From assembly GCF_019649055.1 (NCBI RefSeq), contig NW_026570225.1:2170001-2234000 (forward strand): a DNA stretch of 64,000 nucleotides. The letters are read 5' to 3'. The stretch comes from Paramacrobiotus metropolitanus. Its lineage: Eukaryota > Tardigrada > Eutardigrada > Parachela > Macrobiotidae. The position numbers and the translations under genes are program-made. Position 1 is the first letter of the stretch; every line of letters begins with the position of its first letter. Positions 4,201 to 48,811 of this stretch are shown piece by piece. The notes below the pieces were generated by a model, which saw nothing but the letters and a program-made list of their open reading frames with translations, was not told the DNA's origin and ran no database searches.

Positions 4201-5138
4201 TTGAGCTGCCGCATTTCAATGATAGGCAAATCGCATGCCTCAGTTAATTAATTGTTATTTCCCTATCACAAAATCTGCCACTTTAGGTTTCCCAGCCAGT
4301 GTATTTGCATTGTTTTGCAGGTGTACGCGACCGGCACATCCGTCAGCATACGGGAGAAAAGCCTTACAAATGCTTGCTCTGTGAGAAACGATTCACGCGC
4401 GGTGAGTCACTGAAATTTCACGAGAACGCCCATCAGGGCATCCGACCGTACAGCTGCCCACACGAACACTGCCGGAAGACGTTCACCAAACAGTCCAGCC
4501 TGAAGCGCCACATCCGCTCCGCACACAGCGGACTGGCATCCAGCTTCCGCGTCCGTTCGGCCAAATTCAGCTCACCACTCGCTCACGTATCCGGCTGTTC
4601 GGCTATCTTCCCGACAACAGTGGCTTCGCCCAGCGCCAACAGTGACTGTGTATCAACAACCGGCTCATCCACGGCGGGCCCGGACAGTCCATTTGTCATT
4701 AAGATGGAGGAACTCGACGAGGACGACACCGAAGACCAGCTGCTGCAGAACATGATCCAAAGTCTGAGTGCCGCTGAACTGGATCGCCTGGATCAGTATT
4801 TGGGTTTAAGCAGCACTGATGCCTCGCTGGAGTCATTTTTGAATGGAAGTGGTGGAGAAGTGTTTGATAGTTTTGTAAAAATGGAAGTGGATGCTAACGA
4901 TGTAGCTCGTCCAGGCACTGCTTACCCAACACAGAATTACAACGGGCCTGCTTACAGCGGGCATTATGGGATGAATATGTGGGATCCGGTGGACTGGGAG
5001 ATGCCGGAGCACAAGGTTTTTGATCGACCATGTATGTCGGGTTGCGATTACGACAGAAAATTCCCGTTATATCAAATGAGCGGAAGTTCAGTGTATTGCC
5101 CCGGTCCACACAACTTACCGTATTCCACTGGTTTTTAA
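1255..5138 (+). CDS. C2H2 zinc-finger protein ZfA (six fingers), split gene
   Basis: Exons are 1255..1371 (start, 39 residues), 2885..3018, 3145..3347 and 4321..5138; all phases agree and give 423 residues. The protein is probably a nuclear DNA-binding transcription factor. Six C2H2 fingers run from about residue 57 to 213: CNTC, CPIC, CKIC, CPYC (split by the last intron), CLLC and a C-x4-C finger, with TGEKPY-type linkers. The tail has an acidic stretch (MEELDEDDTEDQLLQNMIQ), two Psi-K-x-E sites (IKME, VKME) and a Tyr/Gly/Asn-rich end. The three zinc-finger exons are firm. The start exon is inferred from its good context (TGCCATGTTT), GTAAGC donor and phase 0; the acceptor before 2885 is weak and a second in-phase acceptor exists at 2908. 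The closest relative here is the gene at 37.4-41.5 kb. An AATAAA sits at 5663. Confidence 0.78.
1372..2884 (+). other. presumed ZfA intron 1 (no further gene seen)
   Basis: About 1.5 kb separates the start exon from the first zinc-finger exon. Apart from the small minisatellite I see only AT-rich DNA with short open frames. One frame (2380..2661) is long enough to be an exon but lacks convincing splice sites in phase. Confidence 0.4.
1675..1762. repeat. short minisatellite (TTTTTGGTATC units)
   Basis: Five or so imperfect copies of a TTTTTGGTATCT/TTTGGTATC unit lie in tandem inside the presumed first intron of ZfA. Confidence 0.7.
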
Positions 5139-13935: not shown

Positions 13936-15116
13936 TTATGGAGGTAACAACAAAATCTCCCCGCCATATACTTTGCGGCTGTCTTTCAGAATCTGGTTAA
14001 GAAAATTGCTTATATGAAAAAACAACGTTTCCTCGTTTTCCGTTGGTCTATCTTTTCTCCGTAGTATGCTCTGCATGATTTCCAGGAGTCCGCCATCAGG
14101 TACTGCTATGCCCAACGGAGTAAGGCGCTCCTTCAGTTTTTCTCTGTGTAGGAAATATGCCGGACACTCATTCAGGGCATGCTGCTTGTCTTCCACAACT
14201 TCGCAAAAGTTGCATAGCCGCCCCTCTTGTGGCACTCCGCTCCATCGTCCTGTCTCTACAGCAAGATGATGGTTTAAGGTCAGCATCTTCATCCACTTTT
14301 CACTGATTCTTACAGGCATGGCTTTTAGCACGTGAATTTCTTCGCTTTCCGGTAGACACTGAAACATAAATAACAACTTGGCAGCATTAGCTTGGATCGA
14401 CATTAGTAAATTCGTCCGGAACTTTATCTCAATTGCGGCCTCACGCCGGTCGAATTTAATTTCGATAATTGCTCTCGAATTTCATGTTCGCTGTTCTTAA
14501 AGTTTATTTCGATCTCCTCCGGTAATTCTTTAAGCGCATTTTTTAACCAACATCGCGATCTGGTTTTACTGACTATAATACTTTCATCGAATGCCGCTCG
14601 TAGAAGAGTGCCTTGATTAGCGCGACAAAGCTTTTCAAGAAAACGCATTTGTTGTCTTATCTGTCGGAAACCAAAAGGTGTCAAGTTTAAAAGGTACAAA
14701 ATCGCCTCGGTACTCGTGATACTCCTCAGATTGAAAACCCGTTTGACAAAAGTCATTTGCACATTTTCTGTCTGATAGTTTCTTCCACATAATTCTGCTC
14801 CGTATACCGCTAGGCTTCCCACAACAGCCTCGAAAATCGTCTGCGCTGTTTCCCATGTGTAACCATTTTTTAACCCAACTAACTTCTGAACCGCCATGTT
14901 ATGTCCCTGTTTTACTCGCTCTTCTAAATGTTTTGCTGTCTTTCTGAGGTCACACTGTTCGTTTAGTACAAGTCCCAGATATTTAAACTCTCGAACCTGT
15001 TCCAGCTTTCGCCCATCGATTTCTATATTACAGATGATTTGTTTTCGCATAGCGCCTTTATATACAAGGTATGCCTCGCGCTCCGCGCTCGGCACTACCC
15101 TCTTGGAAGGATTCAA
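13936..15116 (-). mobile_element. 5'-truncated LINE (non-LTR retrotransposon) fragment
   Basis: Two minus-strand frames, 14424..15116 and 13936..14403, are consecutive parts of one LINE polyprotein. The first ends the reverse transcriptase: after AYLVYKGAM comes FKYLGLVLNEQ, the post-catalytic motif of LINE enzymes, then an alpha-helical region. The second carries a C-terminal CNFCEVVEDKQHALNECP motif, the CCHC-like zinc knuckle seen at the end of many LINE ORF2 proteins. The catalytic YxDD palm and endonuclease are absent, and a frame change near 14404..14424 separates the parts. The copy is therefore dead. An AATAAA on the minus strand (13870..13875) may be its 3' signal. Confidence 0.8.
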
Positions 15117-19552: not shown

Positions 19553-22500
19553 ATGAGTGGTCGGAAGTCAGCGACAGAGAAGAGCAAAGCAAAGCAGAAG
19601 CAGTGCCCCGTATGCAGCAAATGGTATGCCAGCCAGAAAACTTTTAATATTCACAACAGGATTCATACAGGATTTAAACCTCACTGGTAAGTGATCGGAG
19701 TTTACGAAATGCTTTGTTAGGGTTACCCAACCCAAATGTGAGGATGTTGTTCACTGTTAGTTGTGGACTTTGTCCAAAGAAATTCGCTCAAGGAAATGCC
19801 TTAAAAGCCCACATTGATGCTCACAAGGGCAACCGCAATTGGATCTGCGACATCTGTAGCAAAGCTTTCATCCAGTCAGCTCACTTACGAACCCATCAGC
19901 GGGTACACTCAAGGATCAGAAAACATCAGTGCGGTGTTTCCCATCCAGAGTTCTCTTCGAACGGTACGCATAAACAGACGCACATTAATATTCCGCATTA
20001 TTATTTATATTATACAGTGCATCATAGTAATCTGTTCCGCCGTTTCATTGGTAAATGGCAACAGGCTCAGTACTCGATACTCTACATTCTACAGTCGATA
20101 CTGGTGATTCGCCTTTATTATGTAAAATCTTATGAAGGACATTTCCGAACACGTCCGCGTTATATTAGCATACACTTGCTAACATTAGAATCCTTAAATC
20201 AGAACACCCCCAGTCTGGGGGTGTTAGAACTCAGGTTTAGAAAACTCTGAAAACCAACACAGATATGATGGCTGAATTCCATCGAAACGTCAGCAGGCGC
20301 CACACGCAATGTCCAGCATAGCTGCGCCATGAATTACGAATAGTCTGGCTGCAATCTGTAGATTCTGTATTGGTGTTTTTGACAGCTGTCTCATCTATTT
20401 TGCCCTATCGCGCGCACCAGCATTTGCGGTTGCATTGATCTCTATGTAGCCTAGCCCAGTCCGCATCCGATCATTTCGGCCGCATGCGATCACTTCGGCC
20501 AACGTTCATTTCGGCCGAGGTTCACTTCGGCCAGCACCCATTTCGGCCACCGCTCATTTCGGCAACAGCGCATTTGGCCATCTTCAATTTGCCAAGCTTT
20601 CCTAGTTTTTGTTATGTTGCTTAGGTTTTCTTTGGTTTCTTACCAGGGCACCGTTAAACCATTAAATTAGCGTTTGGCCACGCCCACTGGACCATTGCCG
20701 ATGAAAGTATTTTTTTAAGTGTTCCCCATACCTATTCTGTCTTCAAACAAAAAATCAATTTTTTCTGAGGATAAAGGCGGTGACCGTGCCCTGGTTAGGT
20801 TTCTTAGATTTTATTATAGTTTATTTTGTTTTCTTAAGTTATTCTTGGGTAATTCTTAGGTTTCTTAGGTTTTTCTTGAGTTACTCTTAAGTTATTCTTA
20901 GGTTATTCGAAAGGTTATGGTACCATCGAAACACTTACATCAAAAGTATCGTTTTCTTGGCCAAATTAGTCCAAAATAAGCGTCAGCCGAAATAAACTGC
21001 AGCCGAAGTAAATGGCGGCCGAAAAAGTTGGGCCGAAATGAAAACGTCCGAAGTGATCGGTAGCCCATGTACCGGTCCACTTCCCTTAGCGCAACAGCTT
21101 CGACTGGCTGAGATCTTCATGGTAATTTGCGTTTTCATGCAAATTTTGAAGGGAATCGGTTTATAATGAGACTTTTGGTAAACCTCCGCGCGTCTAAACT
21201 TTTGGAATTTTATTTCGCCGATAAATTCCCAATCGGATGTTGCGCGCACAAACTGCTTTCTCGCCAATATATACAAATCACTTGGCTAAAGAATGTCTTA
21301 AAACAATGCGAAAACGTGTTTGGGAATGCGCGAAAGCGAAAGTTTTAGCGCATGTACCCAGATTTGATACGATGTACCATGTAAGTGTATGCTGCTCTGA
21401 CGCGGACGTGTTCGGGAATGTCCCTCGTTAGTTTTTCGGAAATCAGAAAAACAATCTGACCGATGTCTGCACCTGCCGCGGCCAAGTTTATAATAGAAGG
21501 ATTGCAATCTCCCAGCATTGCAATCCTTCTATTGCAATCCCAGAAGAATTGCAATCTCCCAGATACAGTAGAGTCCATGATTTTTGTGGTGCACTTTTCC
21601 CACTATTTACGGCTTCCCATTACAGATATCCACGATGGTGGTTTTAAAATACCTGATGCAAAATACGATCGCCATACTTCTGCAAGTGTTGCTAGAAGGT
21701 CGCGACGCACTGAAAAGAAATATTCATGCGCGACCTGCTTATCTGGGCGGAAGACTCTGTTAGTAAATGAACATCAGCAGCGCAGCAGAAAGGTCGCTCG
21801 TGAACGGCAGCTAAACGGCACAAACCTGTTGTGTGCGGCCGCTCCGGAGCCGATTGTCACTATCAAGCGTGAACCTGGCCGGAAAATGCGCAGTAATTAC
21901 CTGCTTCCGAATGGGTTGCCAGTATATTCGGCAGATGCTGTGAAAGTGCATTTGGATGAGGTTGAGAATCCGTCTGCCGCAGTAAAGGAAGAACCGGCAG
22001 AGGATATTGCAAAGGAGGCTGCGTTGTGTGAGGAGAATAACAGTTCAACGAGTTTTGGAGAATTTGCCAAGCAGATGTTTCAGGTAATTTTCAGAATTAT
22101 TATCACATGTTTCAATTATATGCGCCAGGACTTATTGGAGGGGACTTATGAAAACTTTAACTGGGAATAGCTGTTGTTGCCCCTCCATCTCTTTTGAACA
22201 ACAGTAAGATTCATGAGGTATTCTGTCACCTTCTTAAATTCTTTCACTGTTAATTACGAACCGTATTTACTTTTGTATGGCTGTCCAAAGGCTGTGTATT
22301 TAGCTGATAACAATAAGCTGGCCTTTTGCATTGGGAATACGTAGTATTACTACCCATTATATAAACTGTTTTTATTGATAACGACTGCAAAAGGACTCAA
22401 TCTAATGGCCAAACAGTTTGGTTTCACTGGGCATTTTCTGTGGGTTTTTTGCTTGGCCGCTCCGGCCGCCAGACCGTGCTAGTGGTGGTATCACTACAAA

Positions 22501-28903: not shown

Positions 28904-30885
28904 TCAATATTTCACGTTGTAACCATGGCCGGGCATTCCGTAGCCATAGTTTGGCAGATGACTTTGCATGTTGTTGCAGTCCAGCCCGTTAAACCCATAG
29001 GGATCGTTAAAGGCGCCGAAACCGTTACGACAATTGGCATCGACATTAAACATCATGCAGGAATTGCCGTAGTACGGTCCTTGTAGCCAATTTTCTTGTT
29101 GACTGGAAGTCGGGAAAACCGGAAACGAAAAGTCTGGTTCGAATTTGGCCTCCAGCTTCGCCAAACTGAAGTCGTCACCTGCAGTTTAAGTGTCTCTTCA
29201 GCATTTGTGAGATCCAGCAGGCTCGTAATAGATCAATGTTGATAATATGAACATGGCGTAGCCTCATAATTTAGTAGTAGTTAAACCACCTAAGAACTTC
29301 GTTAATATTTTAGATATTAAAAGCTTATTAAAAGAACTGCACTGTATGCATTTGCAGCACAAAAGCTGTCGTGAAGTTGTTACTTATGGTAACGTTTTGC
29401 AGTGACGTTACCGGAGGTGCTGTGTTTGTAGTATTCGTATCGTTGCATAGCTTCCTCCGCATGCTTGGACATATGTTTCTCCAAGTAACTGGACTGTGTA
29501 TACGATTTTCCACAAAAGCGACAAATATGCGTCTTCAGGTGTTTGGAATCCTTGTGCTTCGGGATATGCGCCTGCAGACTGTGCTTATCTGCGAAGCAGC
29601 GGTAGCAGCTGTTGCAACGGTACGGTTTGTCGGTCTGATGGACTCGGCTGTGGCTCTGCAGATTGCTGAGCTGGGAAAAGGCTTTAATGCAGCCTAAGTA
29701 CGGGCATTTGTACGGCTTATCGCCGGTGTGAGTGCTACAAGCATTCGCAAAAGCATTAAGAGGATCAGAAGACAATTGCTCCGCGAGGAATAATTTGCGC
29801 AGTCGTCGTGGAAAATGCACTGATGCGCTAATCAAGTGGCACTTACCGAACATGTTGTTGTAAGTGTGATAGTTGCGTGAACTTTCGCTGACATATATCG
29901 CAGCGATGAGGTTTAATGCCCAAATGAATGCGCATATGTTGGGAGAGGTAGGAATTGTTGGCGAAAGTCTTTGGACACTGCGAACACCGATACGGCTTGG
30001 CTTCCCTGGCATGGACTTGTAAATGGATTTGGTGTTCCGTTTTTGTATCGAAGATCTGAGCAGGAAATATGTCTTATGTTTCAGAAAACAACCTAGAGGC
30101 TAGATGTACGTTTCTGTGACACTGATCATAAGATTAATCGAATACATACACTGAGTGCACACATAATACCTAACACTATACAGATACCTAATTTACAAAG
30201 CAGACCTTCGCTAATAATAACAATACGACATATAGCAAACTTGGAGATATATTAATATTCTTGCGTGCATAGTAAAGAGGAAAGGTTTTGCTTGTGGCAT
30301 TATGCGTCAATATTTTTTTGTTTCAGAGATTTGCTAGAAAGGAAAAACTATCCGAATTTTAAATCAGTTTACTAAATATTGCTAAAAGTCCGAAAGATAC
30401 CGAACAAATGAATGAAACAAAGAATAACCTCTTGTCCCACCAAAGACCGATACGATATTCAATTATTGTGAACGCGAATTGATTTAATCTGATAACTCGG
30501 CCCACATTCCGCGAGTCCTGTTGCGGCATCTTTTTGATGCGTGCGTATGCCAAAGTGAACTACGTGGCGTATCTGGTCTAGAAGTATGCTAACGTCGTTC
30601 GGTTTCATGGCAAACAAGTAATGCAATTATCAGATCATAATCAGGTTTTTGCAAGTAATCTAATTTTGAAACATACGGTACCTATCTAACAGAAAAATTG
30701 CACCGGACCTGATAGCACATTTTGCACGAAAAGTGTCGGGAATGCAGGGATTTGGGAGCGGGCAATGGCGCGGTCGGCCAGTACGTTGCTGATGTGTTCC
30801 CGCCAATCGTTGAGTACTGTGGCATTGCACAACGTCCGTACATATCCGTACCGCCCATACCAAAGAAATCATCGTCGCAATGCAT
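28904..30885 (-). CDS. lin-29: LIN-29/Rotund/Squeeze-type six-finger transcription factor
   Basis: Minus-strand exons are 30709..30885, 29847..30055, 29412..29734 and 28904..29178, all in phase, giving 327 residues from the ATG at 30885. Six C2H2 fingers start at Cys54, 83, 111, 139, 169 and 200. Finger 1 is split by the first intron. Diagnostic strings include FTQLSHLQQHVRTHTGDKPY, AFSQLSNLQSHSRVHQTDKP and GKSYTQSSYLEKHMSKHAE, which match the nematode LIN-29, insect Rotund/Squeeze and vertebrate ZNF362/384 group. Members are nuclear regulators of developmental timing, appendage patterning or neuron identity. The tail is Tyr/Gly/Asn/Met-rich and lacks further domains. The reading frame stays open upstream of the ATG to an acceptor at 30895, so a longer N-terminus is possible. 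Confidence 0.9.
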
Positions 30886-36105: not shown

Positions 36106-36109
36106 GCTC

Positions 36110-36287
36110 TGTGAGGAGAGAAGCGGCTCACGTTCAGCGACAAAATCTTTCAAATGATTTCAACGTATTGCGCCGTGGTGCAGTGGTACTGCCTACGCGG
36201 ATCTAACGACGTAGCCGGGGTTCGATTCCCCCATCGGCGCCTTTTTCAGCCGTTTCTCAGTTTCCAGTGGATAGCGCCCTGCTTATT
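36110..36287 (+). repeat. 5' LTR of the TRIM
   Basis: 178 bp beginning TGTGAGGAGAGAAGCGG and ending GCCCTGCTTATT. Identical over its length to 36539..36716. Confidence 0.88.
36170..36241 (+). ncRNA. tRNA-like unit in the 5' LTR
   Basis: 72 bases from GCGCCG to CGGCGCC form a tRNA-like cloverleaf. It has a 6-bp acceptor stem, an A box TGGTGCAGTGG (36176..36186), a CTACG/CGTAG anticodon-type stem, and a B box GGTTCGATTCC (36219..36229) in a T arm of four G-C pairs. TTTTT follows at once (36242..36246), a polymerase III stop. The anticodon-type loop is 12 bases instead of 7, so no anticodon can be assigned. It is likely a pol III promoter or tRNA mimic rather than a working tRNA. Confidence 0.7.
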
Positions 36288-36303
36288 TGGTAGCAGAGCG
36301 TGG
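36288..36303 (+). promoter_or_regulatory. primer-binding site, initiator tRNA-Met type
   Basis: TGGTAGCAGAGCGTGG starts immediately after the 5' LTR. From memory, the first 12 bases are complementary to the 3' end (including CCA) of insect initiator tRNA-Met. Confidence 0.8.
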
Positions 36304-36504
36304 TTGAGTTGGGCCTAGTGCGTTAGTGTGCCTCTACATCCCTGCGGACGAAAGCCGCACTGGAAACGAGGAACGAGCCGGGAGCGGTTATCGGGAAGCC
36401 GCCTAAACGAATAAAAGAAAAAACGAATAAAAGGATGCGGTAATTGCAACCGCTTAGGAGGATGCGGTGAGCCGGAGCCGCCGCTTAAAAGGATCGCTTA
36501 GTCT

Positions 36505-36522
36505 CGCTACGAGGACGTAGCG
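36505..36522 (+). other. hairpin in the TRIM interior
   Basis: CGCTACG and CGTAGCG pair perfectly around AGGA, just upstream of the purine tract. It could be an RNA packaging or processing structure; its role is unknown. Confidence 0.6.
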
Positions 36523-36530
36523 AAAGCTGC

Positions 36531-36538
36531 AAAGGGGG
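36531..36538 (+). promoter_or_regulatory. polypurine tract
   Basis: AAAGGGGG abuts the 3' LTR, where plus-strand DNA synthesis is primed in LTR elements. Confidence 0.8.
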
Positions 36539-36716
36539 TGTGAGGAGAGAAGCGGCTCACGTTCAGCGACAAAATCTTTCAAATGATTTCAACGTATTGC
36601 GCCGTGGTGCAGTGGTACTGCCTACGCGGATCTAACGACGTAGCCGGGGTTCGATTCCCCCATCGGCGCCTTTTTCAGCCGTTTCTCAGTTTCCAGTGGA
36701 TAGCGCCCTGCTTATT
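36539..36716 (+). repeat. 3' LTR of the TRIM
   Basis: Identical to the 5' LTR and followed by GCTC, the right copy of the target duplication. Confidence 0.88.
36599..36670 (+). ncRNA. tRNA-like unit in the 3' LTR
   Basis: Identical second copy of the unit at 36170..36241, with the same A box, B box and following T run. Confidence 0.7.
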
Positions 36717-37351
36717 GCTCGCATGCAGTCAGTAGCTAAGTACTTAGTTAATAGCTTGGTACAATGTACCATTTCCCTTCGTCAATTTTATGTACAGATA
36801 TGGTTGTTACCGTTTCGTTCATGCAACAGAACCAGAAAACGTAATATCTGTATTTGATATACAACTGTTATTTGCTAACCAGAAATAAGGGCTACTCCTG
36901 AACGCTTCCATCTTCTGACGTGGTACGCGCTACTGCCTATAAATACCGGCACTGACAATGAAGTATGTGTCGGCATTTACCGATTACCTACTAGTACTTA
37001 ATTTCTAACTGCATGTATTTTTAGAATTTAATGCTGCTCGTAGCGTTTAAAAACAAAGCCACTAGTAAAGTTAAGAAGTATTCCACAAAAACAGATCAGC
37101 TTTAAACCACAGAAAGCACAGAAAGCCAAATACATAACTACCGAATATCAGATCCAACGTTCCCATCACAGTGCATTTCCAGTGAGATAATCACAGAATG
37201 TAATTAATTCACCAATCCTTCTCTGACTCCTTCCCACTAACTTCTGAACTATCGTTTCATAAGGTCAAGAGCATTAAAAGGAAAACAGTCACACAATAAT
37301 TAGGTAAATATTAATCGAAGTACTCAAACATGCAGCACCCGGCATAATGCA
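36717..37351. other. no gene seen
   Basis: Spacer between the TRIM and the 3' end of ZfD; presumably includes the ZfD 3' UTR. Confidence 0.4.
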
Positions 37352-40300
37352 TTACTCACGCCTCACGAACTGCATTGAATTCCACGCCTCAACGCCATAA
37401 GTTCCAAACTCCGCGAACGGATCCTGCACGTAAATTCTGTCTTGTCCGCTGGTGTACGAGGCCCAGGCCTCCGGTTTGGTGCACATCATTCTATATCTTT
37501 GGCAGTCGATGGGTGCAGGTAACGTTTCCATACGATGTGCCATGTCACTACCGCCCAGGTAGCCGTAATAGCCAGGAAAATATTCCGGCTCAAATTCCTC
37601 CATCTTTGGTGCTATCTCTGCGTGCACGTGCGGAATGTGGCAAGTAACAGCAGCACTTGACGAAGCCCCTAGACCTGGCAGTCGAATGGCAAAATCCGCA
37701 CTTAGCTGAACTCCCGGCGGCCGCTCTGCTGCCACAGAGGAAGTTGAATGGCAAGTAGTAACATGGCGTTTTAAACTGGACTGTTTTGTAAAGGTAGACT
37801 GACATCCAGTGTGCTGACAGTGATAAGGACGAATGCCTTTGTGAGCATTCTCGTGGAACTTCAAGGATTCCCCCCTTGTAAACGATTTTGGGCATTGGCT
37901 ACACTTATATGGCTTTTCGCCTGTGTGCTGACGAATATGACGGTCGCGGACACCTGTAAAAAGCCGAATTAACAACCTGAAAAATCCAATTGTCAAAAAT
38001 AATAAAATGCGAATAGTGGTATCGAGCAGTATTGCAGTGAGTACTAACCCATTTACAGGTACAGTGAAGTAAGTATCACGTACACATGATAACACATCTA
38101 ACGCTATTACGGCAATCACAAGTTGTAATGATTTCAGTAGTTTCAAAAAAATAATTTATAAGATCATGATTAGGGCTCTCGCCTATGTGCATTCGTAATT
38201 TATAAAGAATTAAAGACACACTGGCAGTCGGATATTACCTAGCCTGGGTCCCTCCGGAAATTTGTTTCCATTTTCCATTTAATCCGCTTAAACATTTTGT
38301 GCGAAAATTTAGAAAATGGTAAACCTACGAACCACCGCTTCCGGCGAATGGCAGCCTCCCGAGGGTGGCAGCGTGTTTTGGCTTTGGCACAAATCTGTCT
38401 ACTTTTTACTTTATAAAATTCGTTTTCCCAAACAGAAGCAACTCTTTCTGCTTGATTTTTAAATTTTAATGAAAAGCAGTAAAGTGAAAAAATCGTTTTT
38501 TTATCGTAAGCAATCAGACCGTTTTGTTGGGTAAACGAAGCGAACCTGTGGAAGCTGCCTCGCGGTGCGCGGTAAGTGGCAAACTCCTCGTAAATATTAA
38601 TTATAAACCCCGTGCGAGTGTTATAGTCGTATTATGTGCCTTAAACACGGGTTACACCGGTTCTAATAATTATTGTAAGTAGCCTGCTTGAAGTCAAGTA
38701 AATGCAACCCTTATACTTTGTAATTACTGAATTCAAAATCGCCAGTAAACAATGAATTGCTATTTTACGCGATCATGATGTTGACTGACTGCAGGGTGTT
38801 GTTTCTGTTAGCTTTCATGCTGGTGTTAGCAAATTGTTAAAATTTTTTTAGTTATCCATCGTGCCCTTCACCGTGTAATTCTTGGTCATTGTCCACTGCC
38901 TTGAAACGGGCGCGGTTCCGTTGCACGAAGACAATAAATTCACCATTATTGTTATTGCGAAAATTATGTTTAGAAAAGTGATAATAAAATCATGGTACTG
39001 ACTTGTGAGTACAGAGTTCGGATGCTGAGTCGTAGACTAAAGGTAATAATTGTTGTATAATTTTTCGAAATGGCTGTGCGCCCCGACAATCGGGGTGCAA
39101 AGTAAAATGGCTGTGCGCCCGGTCAGGACGCGAAGTAATTTGGCTGTGCGCCCCGAATTTTATGTGGAAACGAAACCTTCCAGGCCCCGAATTTAATGGG
39201 TTTGCAAAATACAGGTAGATACTAATTACACAATTTACTGAAATCTTCTAATAAGGTACTAAAATGGTACACCGTCCTAACCGGGCGCATAGCCAATTTA
39301 CTTCGCGCCCCGATCGGGGCGCACAGCCGTTTTGCTTTGCGCCCCGATTGTCGGGGCGCATAGCACTGACCATAATTTTTATCATTTACTTGCGATTTTA
39401 ATTTCAGATTATTTTATTAGCGTTTCGCTTAATGTACAATATGTGCGTGTATGTGCGTGTTCCCTCTATGTAGGGATTTGCACATACACGTAACTGTAAC
39501 GAGTTGACAATGGGCTAAACGAACAGTTTGCCATAAACATTAATTATTTTGTCGAAGGTGTAGAGTACGACCGCGCTCGACATGAAAGGACGATTATTAA
39601 TTTCATATTATGGAACATGAGCTATGAAATTAATAGTCGTCCTAACTATAATTCTATACCGTATTATTAATTCTATAGAAGTACCGTAAAAAATTATAAT
39701 GCGTAAGACACTACATGTTAACATGTTACTTACATGTCACAGATGTCAGTGCTTCGTGTAGCAAAATCAGTGCGTTTATTGTTTTGTTGCCCCTTAGAAT
39801 GAAGATTCTTTCGTCGCCTTTTGTTGCTGTTGCACGTTGTATGTTTTTGAAGTCGATTATTATTTAAAATTTCAGAGGTTCGCCTGCAGTAGCAGGTTCA
39901 TGACTCTCGGCAGATTTTCGCTTTTCGGTTTATGTTCAATAAGAGGCAGACTAGCTGCACATTTACCTCGTGACTCGTTCGGATTTGAATAAACTACCGA
40001 GTATAGTTCATAAAAATTTTTAGGTTTATAGGTAGTCGCTAGTTTCTTGTGCCGGTAGCTAGGTATATAAAAATTTTAGGTAAAGGCTCAGCATATCATT
40101 TCTCGTTTCATAACCGTTGGCTCCTTGTGCCACCCTTGACTTCTAATCTAACCCTTGATTGCAAAACCTCCTTCGGCTTCGTACATCACCATAAATTACG
40201 CTCTTCTATTTGAGTTCAGTTTAAAGAAGCTGCTATGATATATTGAAAAATAACTAAACTAAAAAATAAAAACTTTATTAAGTTTAATCACTTACGTAAT

Positions 40301-47282: not shown

Positions 47283-48811
47283 CTAATACAGCAGGTCCAG
47301 CATGTTCAAAAAGCCTTGCTCATCCCAAACAAAATCCATTGGATCGCCAGCCTCAAACGGCTCGAAATCATTCTGCTCCTGCTTAATCAGGCCATTTAGA
47401 ACCTACAGTAGAAAACCAGGAAATCGTGTAATATTAATTTTGCTAATTGCACCGAAATTATCGGCCAGCACCTGTTCGGTGACATTCTCGTCGTATTCAG
47501 TGGTTACCTCTTCCTCTTCCTGTTTCACAGGATTTGCAATAACCGCCTCGTTGGCCTGATCATCTTCAGGCGGACAAACCACCGGAAGTGGTCCGGGCAT
47601 TTCGGGGTCGCCGGGCTCAATTTCAGTTTTAATTTGGCATCCAACTGCAGCTGTGTGGCAACGCACCCCTCCACTATTAGATTGCAAAAAGCTTCGCCTA
47701 TTCTTCGATTTCGTACGCTTACGCGCAGTACTCCCAATATTTCGGCGTTGCAGACATCTGTGTTGTATTTGACTTTCCCGACGGGAGAAAGACTTCTGAC
47801 AGAACTGACAAGGATACGGTTTGACGCCGGTATGCCTATGCTCATGACGATCCCGAGCAGCTATGCAAAATAAAATATTTTCTAATTTCGACAACCAACT
47901 TAATGGTATACGTGACGGCCGTTTATAATGTATGCCAGTTTCGTTATTATATGACTGCTACAGCAATAGTATTGTTTTGGTTGTTAAAAAATTGAAGTAA
48001 GTACGCTAAGAGCTCTGGTTCTGTTTGAATACAAGATATCTCCATTCGATATTCAAAAACGTCGGCTACAGACTCTAAACAAGAATTAGCCTCTAATTCA
48101 CGAATTCTATATCAAAATTTACGCATGCAAAGCCGCGCAAACCGCAAAGCATTCTGTAATAAATCCAAAAATTTGATTGTGCGGAACCTTGATTTCTTCG
48201 ACTATTCAAGAAAAGGCATTTTTTATCTTGATAATACCACTGATGTTATTAATTTATTAATGTAAACAAATAGTGTTAGAGACCGGTCATACTAGGTACG
48301 ACGACTCTCTTCTACGTAGATCTTTCGTCATCACACACTAATTATTAAATGTATTCGCGTGTCATCTCACCTTTCGAGGAAAACTTGCTCAAGCATTGTG
48401 AGCATTGGTGATTTTTGTTCTTCAAATGCGTATTTTGATGAGTCCGCAAATGGGCGGACTGAACGAACGCTTTTGAGCAGACCGGACAGACGTAATCGCG
48501 GCGTCCAAGATGCGCGTTTATGTGGGCCTTCAGGACGTTAGCCTGGGAAAATTTCTTGGGGCATAAAAAACAACTGCAAGACAACGCCTTATAAAGCATC
48601 CTTAACTGACACCCGGTTGTTTGAAAACACTACATGCAATATCGGCCGCTTCTTGCTTTACTGACCAGTGTGGCTTATAGCCAGTGTGGATACGATCATG
48701 AATCTTTAATGACTTCTTGCTGGAATACATTTTGAGACACGTTGGACACTGTACTGCACGTCGGGCCGACGAGGCCGTTTCCTTGTGCCTTTTATTTTTT
48801 CGTCCAGTCAT
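47283..48811 (-). CDS. C2H2 zinc-finger protein ZfF, split gene
   Basis: Minus-strand exons are 48666..48811 (start), 48371..48573 (203 bp), 47472..47860 and 47283..47402. Phases agree and give 285 residues. The start MTGRKNKRHKE is basic, as in ZfB. Fingers begin CPTC (Cys22), CFLC, CPVC, CSQC (completed by HEHRH after an intron) and CQFC; the last has an abnormal second half. The acidic tail carries IKTE, VKQE and IKQE, all SUMO-acceptor type, and ends MLDLLY. The last 69-bp intron has a good pyrimidine tract. If it is retained, the frame stays open to 47403 and gives a different C-terminus (ITRFPGFLL). An in-frame ATG at 48931 is an alternative start. Confidence 0.85.

What the first reader, a model, noticed from the sequence alone, without database searches (positions are those of the whole stretch)
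36110..36716. Complete miniature LTR retrotransposon whose LTRs carry a tRNA-like pol III unit
All parts of a TRIM are visible: identical 178-bp LTRs, an initiator tRNA-Met primer site, a purine tract, a 4-bp target duplication and no coding capacity. Each LTR contains an A box, a B box and a following T run in a tRNA-like fold. Plant Cassandra TRIMs carry 5S rRNA in their LTRs; a tRNA-bearing equivalent in an animal would be a parallel invention. It would let pol III drive transcription from within the LTR, independent of the insertion site.
Basis: partly seen in the sequence, partly recalled or inferred. Interest (0 to 1): 0.92.

Follow-up and report, generated by a model that had tools for sequence, protein, structure and literature searches.

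The report
tRNA-carrying miniature LTR retrotransposon (Helenus-type)
This is a young copy of a family of tiny virus-like jumping genes whose end repeats carry a tRNA-like promoter; it is real and multi-copy, but the same kind of element was already described in 2024 under the name Helenus.

Summary
Window 36110-36716 is a complete 607-bp TRIM: identical 178-bp LTRs, primer site directly after LTR1, purine tract, GCTC duplication. The genome (169.8 Mb) holds dozens of full copies and hundreds of LTR candidates. Of 69 copies examined, 53 have a perfect 4-bp duplication exactly at the homologous ends.

The tRNA-like module (A box, B box, T5) is under constraint. Post-insertion mutations are spread evenly over the LTR, but subfamily-defining changes are about five times rarer in the module (4/81 versus 23/97 sites, P=0.0006). 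At least one, probably two, further TRIM families in the genome carry a related module and the same primer site; other LTRs with that primer site carry TATA-like and poly(A) signals instead.

The claim of a new invention is wrong. Kojima (2024, PMC10886601) described tRNA-bearing TRIMs (Helenus) from fungi, a plant and six animal phyla. This is a new Helenus lineage. New details: an initiator-Met-type primer site with a 4-bp duplication, and evidence of selection on the promoter. Pol III transcription is inferred, host unidentified. T5 would stop pol III inside the 5' LTR, so the element needs read-through.

The parts
36106..36109 (.). 5' target site duplication GCTC
36110..36287 (+). 5' LTR, 178 bp (starts TGTGAG, ends TTATT)
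   Evidence: same ends in 53 of 69 genome copies with exact 4-bp duplications
36169..36241 (+). tRNA-like module of the 5' LTR (cloverleaf fold; not a functional tRNA)
36176..36186 (+). A box TGGTGCAGTGG
36219..36229 (+). B box GGTTCGATTCC
   Evidence: GGTTCRA intact in 95 of 107 LTRs
36242..36246 (+). T5 run, pol III terminator-like; T4 or longer in 101 of 107 LTRs
36288..36305 (+). primer-binding site TGGTAGCAGAGCGTGGTT, initiator tRNA-Met type (3' end)
36306..36530 (+). non-coding internal region (251 bp with PBS and PPT; only its 3' ~81 bp is shared with most copies, whose internal part is ~185 bp)
36531..36538 (+). polypurine tract AAAGGGGG
36539..36716 (+). 3' LTR, identical to the 5' LTR
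36598..36670 (+). tRNA-like module of the 3' LTR (A box 36605-36615, B box 36648-36658)
36671..36675 (+). T5 run of the 3' LTR; inferred end of the full-length RNA
   Evidence: inference
36717..36720 (.). 3' target site duplication GCTC

Best explanation
A recently inserted, non-autonomous LTR retrotransposon (TRIM) of the Helenus type. Inferred cycle: RNA polymerase III is recruited by the A and B boxes in the 5' LTR, starts near 36165-36169, reads through the T5 run of the 5' LTR in a fraction of transcripts and stops at the T5 run of the 3' LTR. This gives an RNA of about 507 nt with the whole tRNA-like module as its terminal repeat (U3 about 36110-36168, R about 36169-36246, U5 36247-36287). 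Initiator tRNA-Met primes minus-strand synthesis at 36288, the purine tract at 36531-36538 primes the plus strand, and the reverse transcriptase and integrase of an autonomous LTR element with the same primer site, most likely Ty3/Gypsy, copy and insert it with a 4-bp duplication. Shown: anatomy, copy number, duplications, solo LTRs, selective constraint on the module, other LTRs with the same primer site. Inferred: pol III use, start and stop points, read-through, the Gypsy partner.
For: Anatomy. Multi-copy with exact ends: (53/69 copies with perfect 4-bp duplications; full, solo and tandem 3- or 4-LTR copies). Recent activity: 8 of 35 full or tandem copies, this one included, have end LTRs with no substitutions. 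Constraint: private changes 0.89, 0.98 and 0.90 per site in U3, module and U5, but shared variants at 4/81 module sites against 23/97 outside, Fisher P=0.0006; these copies mostly came from the 607-bp and internal-region searches, not the core search. The core is 100% identical at 40 or more places. T4 or longer after the module in 101/107 LTRs; no T4 run in any of 38 internal regions. A second complete family with an unrelated LTR body, a related module, the same primer site, and duplications ATGA (L110) and GCAC (L172); its only T4+ runs also follow the module. Other LTRs with the same primer site carry TATA-like and AATAAA-like motifs, and families 1 and 2 carry no TATA motif. At least 150 scored Ty3/Gypsy RT-RNaseH matches out of 1043 candidates. 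Prior description of the same architecture, with Gypsy as the likely partner in animals: PMC10886601.
Against: No expression data. The T5 run in the 5' LTR should terminate pol III. No autonomous element sharing internal sequence was found, and no primer site lay 1-7 kb upstream of a scored Gypsy domain on the same strand (only 150 of 1043 candidates scored). A canonical iMet gene was not found. T4 avoidance outside the module is not significant on its own (P about 0.05).
Confidence: 0.85

Rival explanations
1. Ordinary pol II TRIM whose LTR happens to hold a decayed tRNA or SINE relic with no present function.
For: Module is not a functional tRNA. T5 in the 5' LTR is awkward for pol III. The Echinococcus ta-TRIM is transcribed by LTR promoters into polyadenylated RNA (PMC4558846).
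Against: Selective constraint concentrated on the module and T run. A second family keeps a related module in an unrelated LTR. No TATA motif in the two families, and AATAAA lies inside 31 of 38 internal regions, where it could truncate a pol II transcript.
Confidence: 0.12
2. Plain tandem duplication of a tRNA gene with flanks, not a mobile element.
For: Two identical copies 429 bp apart.
Against: Dozens of dispersed copies with identical ends, 4-bp duplications, primer site and purine tract.
Confidence: 0.005
3. The tRNA-like module acts mainly at the RNA level (packaging, primer annealing or strand transfer as part of the R repeat), and its constraint reflects that rather than promoter use.
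For: Cloverleaf is the minimum-energy fold; three families share B box, ATCGG and T run.
Against: Invariant columns across families are mainly the box A core, box B and the 3' acceptor half, with the anticodon arm free to vary; fold z-scores are modest (-1.5 and -0.2).
Confidence: 0.12

Closest known systems
Helenus (Kojima 2024, PMC10886601), TRIMs with a tRNA-like sequence in the LTR; animal lineages
   Same: Two LTRs with a tRNA-like box A/B module, PBS at LTR1 end, PPT, 4-bp duplications in animals, 311-1263 bp long, solo LTRs, tandem arrays in some families, tRNA-like part generally not a functional tRNA.
   Different: The primer site here is initiator-Met type; the paper reports Lys/Leu/Trp/Arg (Hymenoptera), His/Leu/Lys (vertebrates) and Lys/His/Ile/Pro/Glu/Ser (bivalves), with iMet only in fungi, which have 5-bp duplications. 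No letter-by-letter comparison with Repbase consensus sequences was possible.
Cassandra (plants)
   Same: TRIM with a pol III promoter and terminator in the LTR; iMet-type primer site (TGGTATCAGAGC in plants); tandem arrays (PMC7215508).
   Different: Cassandra carries 5S rRNA, this carries a tRNA-like sequence; no 5S match here.
Ajax (nemerteans)
   Same: Small-RNA promoter inside TRIM LTRs.
   Different: 5S-derived, 5-bp duplications, tRNA-Leu primer (PMC10886601).
tRNA-derived SINEs
   Same: Same kind of pol III head; proposed source of the module.
   Different: No LTRs, PBS, PPT or integrase-type duplications.

Membership tests
TRIM / LTR retrotransposon | Two direct LTRs, near identical, bounding a short element under 1 kb | tested here: met
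   607 bp
TRIM / LTR retrotransposon | PBS abutting LTR1 and PPT abutting LTR2 | tested here: met
   conserved in nearly all full copies
TRIM / LTR retrotransposon | 4-6 bp target site duplication at many independent loci | tested here: met
   53 of 69 exact 4-bp
TRIM / LTR retrotransposon | No coding capacity | tested here: met
   no ORF of 150 aa or more overlaps it
Helenus | tRNA-derived sequence inside the LTR with box A and box B | tested here: met
   GGTTC in box B met; box A is TGGTG..TGG, not the commonest TRGCY..YGG
Helenus | 4-bp duplication in animal lineages | tested here: inconclusive
   4-bp duplications shown, but the host was not identified as an animal
Helenus | tRNA-like part generally not a functional tRNA | tested here: met
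   (family 1). ARAGORN does call tRNA-Leu(CAG) in family 2
Helenus | Sequence similarity to a published Helenus consensus | not testable with these tools
   Repbase and the paper's supplement are not available here
Helenus | PBS shared with Gypsy elements of the same genome | tested here: inconclusive
   Same PBS at LTRs with TATA-like/poly(A)-like motifs; their pol genes could not be read
TRIMp3 (pol III-transcribed TRIM) | Transcription by RNA polymerase III | not testable with these tools
   no RNA data; constraint on the module is indirect support
Cassandra | 5S rRNA sequence in the LTR | tested here: not met

The most novel reading that the evidence does not exclude
Several LTR families in one genome carry related tRNA-like modules on unrelated LTR bodies, all keyed to the same initiator-Met primer site as pol II-type LTR elements. 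This suggests that a pol III promoter and terminator cassette was moved between LTR bodies, with the complete cloverleaf serving as the R repeat and a leaky T5 terminator doing the job that the poly(A) signal does in retroviruses.
Probability: 0.3. Interest if true: 0.6.

Novelty: new member of a known kind. Interest (0 to 1): 0.42.

Why it matters
It adds a lineage with initiator-Met priming to a group known only since 2024. It also gives population-genetic evidence that the tRNA-like module is selected, which the original paper inferred from motif conservation alone. A young copy with identical LTRs, next to other LTRs that use the same primer site, makes the open question of whether Helenus is really driven by pol III directly testable.

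Tried and rejected
Tandem duplication of a tRNA gene: rejected. Functional tRNA gene: rejected for family 1. 5S/Cassandra: rejected. Autonomous partner by shared internal sequence: none found. Canonical iMet gene by two patterns: not found. Source SINE: held sequences contain the module only inside these TRIM LTRs; the nearest tRNA genes (Arg-CCT, Gly-GCC) are about as close to it as the family-2 module is. Host: no COX1, Chitin_bind_4 or Col_cuticle_N match, which argues against arthropod and nematode, though the tool warns that absence is not proof. T4 avoidance: only borderline. Candidate third family at L159/L169: B box and T5 but no second LTR within reach, not counted. Fourth at L166/L170: good module, but the 3' LTR is reduced to 31 bp, so counted only as probable.

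Full report
Observation. The two 178-bp repeats are identical. The flanks GCTC/GCTC, the primer site TGGTAGCAGAGCGTGGTT directly after the first repeat and AAAGGGGG directly before the second are all present. Each LTR holds A box TGGTGCAGTGG, B box GGTTCGATTCC and a T5 run. The module folds as a four-arm cloverleaf (-31.5 kcal/mol, z about -1.5) but is not a tRNA gene: ARAGORN finds none and Rfam gives only 22 bits for tRNA-Sec.

Genome-wide test. I ran that search. The whole element and its LTR have many relatives (337 and 381 first-look candidates). The internal region alone has about 50 candidates, so most LTR copies must be solo. I read about 70 copies with flanks. Of 69 distinct elements, 53 have a perfect 4-bp duplication at exactly the ends homologous to 36110 and 36716, and 4 more do with a shift of one or two bases. 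Three- and four-LTR tandem copies also occur. Eight of 35 full or tandem copies, including this one, have end LTRs with no substitutions, so the family was active recently. The tandem-duplication alternative is excluded.

Selection on the module. For LTRs of full-length copies, I separated changes private to one or two copies (post-insertion decay) from changes shared by three or more loci (differences between active lineages). Private changes are even along the LTR: 0.89, 0.98 and 0.90 per site in U3, module and U5. Shared variants are rare in the module: 4 of 81 sites against 23 of 97 outside (Fisher P=0.0006). Two of the four are the C and G of the CpG in the B box and may be recurrent deamination. 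Most of these copies came from the 607-bp and internal-region searches, not from the core search. The T run is at least T4 in 101 of 107 LTRs, and none of 38 internal regions has a T4 run; a shuffle test of T4 avoidance outside the module is only borderline (P about 0.05).

Other elements with the same primer site. The primer-site pattern occurs 125 times in the genome against 0 for the reversed control. I read 42 such sites outside the copies already in hand. Two were further divergent family-1 copies. Several groups of LTRs ending at this primer site have TATA-like and AATAAA-like motifs and look like ordinary pol II LTRs. Three sites (L110, L153, L160) are a second complete TRIM family: 228-bp LTRs unrelated to the first outside the module, a related module, T5 directly behind it, internal region about 253 bp, duplications ATGA (L110) and GCAC (L172). 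One site (L166/L170) is probably another, with a truncated 3' LTR, and one (L159/L169) is unclear. Across the families the invariant columns are box A core, box B, ATCGG and, where the aligned stretch reaches it, the T run. LTR1 and family-2 LTR align better than any of 500 shuffles (33 against a maximum of 25), but this comes from the module; U3 alone is borderline and U5 shows nothing.

Mechanism. The strongest reading is a pol III-driven TRIM moved in trans. The element can only replicate if pol III reads through sometimes and stops at the same site in the 3' LTR. That would make the tRNA-like module itself the R repeat, and the RNA about 507 nt. Cassandra is reported to start in the 5S of one LTR and end in that of the other (PMC10886601), and transcripts that read through intervening LTRs are reported for Cassandra arrays (PMC7215508), so this is plausible but not shown here. 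AATAAA inside 31 of 38 internal regions argues against long pol II transcripts.

What is known. Kojima 2024 (PMC10886601) named TRIMs with tRNA-like LTRs Helenus and found them in fungi, one plant and six animal phyla, with 4-bp duplications and Gypsy-like primer sites in animals. The finding is a member of that kind. The difference is the primer site: in that paper iMet is used only by fungal Helenus, which have 5-bp duplications, whereas here an iMet-type site goes with 4-bp duplications. The canonical iMet gene was not recovered by two pattern searches, so the primer's name rests on 18 bases.

Limits. The host is unidentified; searches for a cuticle-protein domain and nematode cuticle collagen were negative, with the tool's caveat about absence. 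'Animal' is therefore an assumption supported only by C2H2 zinc-finger genes in the window. No RNA data exist.

Noticed in passing
L110, L153, L160, L171, L172: A second complete tRNA-bearing TRIM family (228-bp LTRs, TGATAGGC...GAGA), same primer site, 4-bp duplications; ARAGORN calls its module tRNA-Leu(CAG).
   Followed up: yes
L166 / L170 (C91:481500-482900): Probable further tRNA-bearing TRIM with module GCCGATAGCCTAGTGG...AATCGGCAGATTTTTT; its 3' LTR is reduced to 31 bp.
   Followed up: partly
L159 / L169 (C53:279000-280300): B box and T5 run upstream of the same primer site, no second LTR found nearby.
   Followed up: partly
whole genome G000: Very rich in Ty3/Gypsy: 1043 first-look candidates for RT_RNaseH_2, with many long open frames.
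   Followed up: no
whole genome G000: The iMet-type primer site is shared by many unrelated LTR families, yet no canonical initiator tRNA-Met gene was found by pattern.
   Followed up: partly
window 4299-5138 +, 37352-38146 -, 47403-47894 - (also 19714-20250 +, 29380-30012 -): Several C2H2 zinc-finger exons; three share an RDRH start at the exon edge, which suggests a local paralogue cluster.
   Followed up: no
window 13936-15116 -: Two adjacent open frames that look like the end of a non-LTR retrotransposon; no Pfam hit.
   Followed up: no
C60:271290-272552, C56:314507-315409: Tandem copies with four and three LTRs sharing internal regions, each flanked by one 4-bp duplication.
   Followed up: partly
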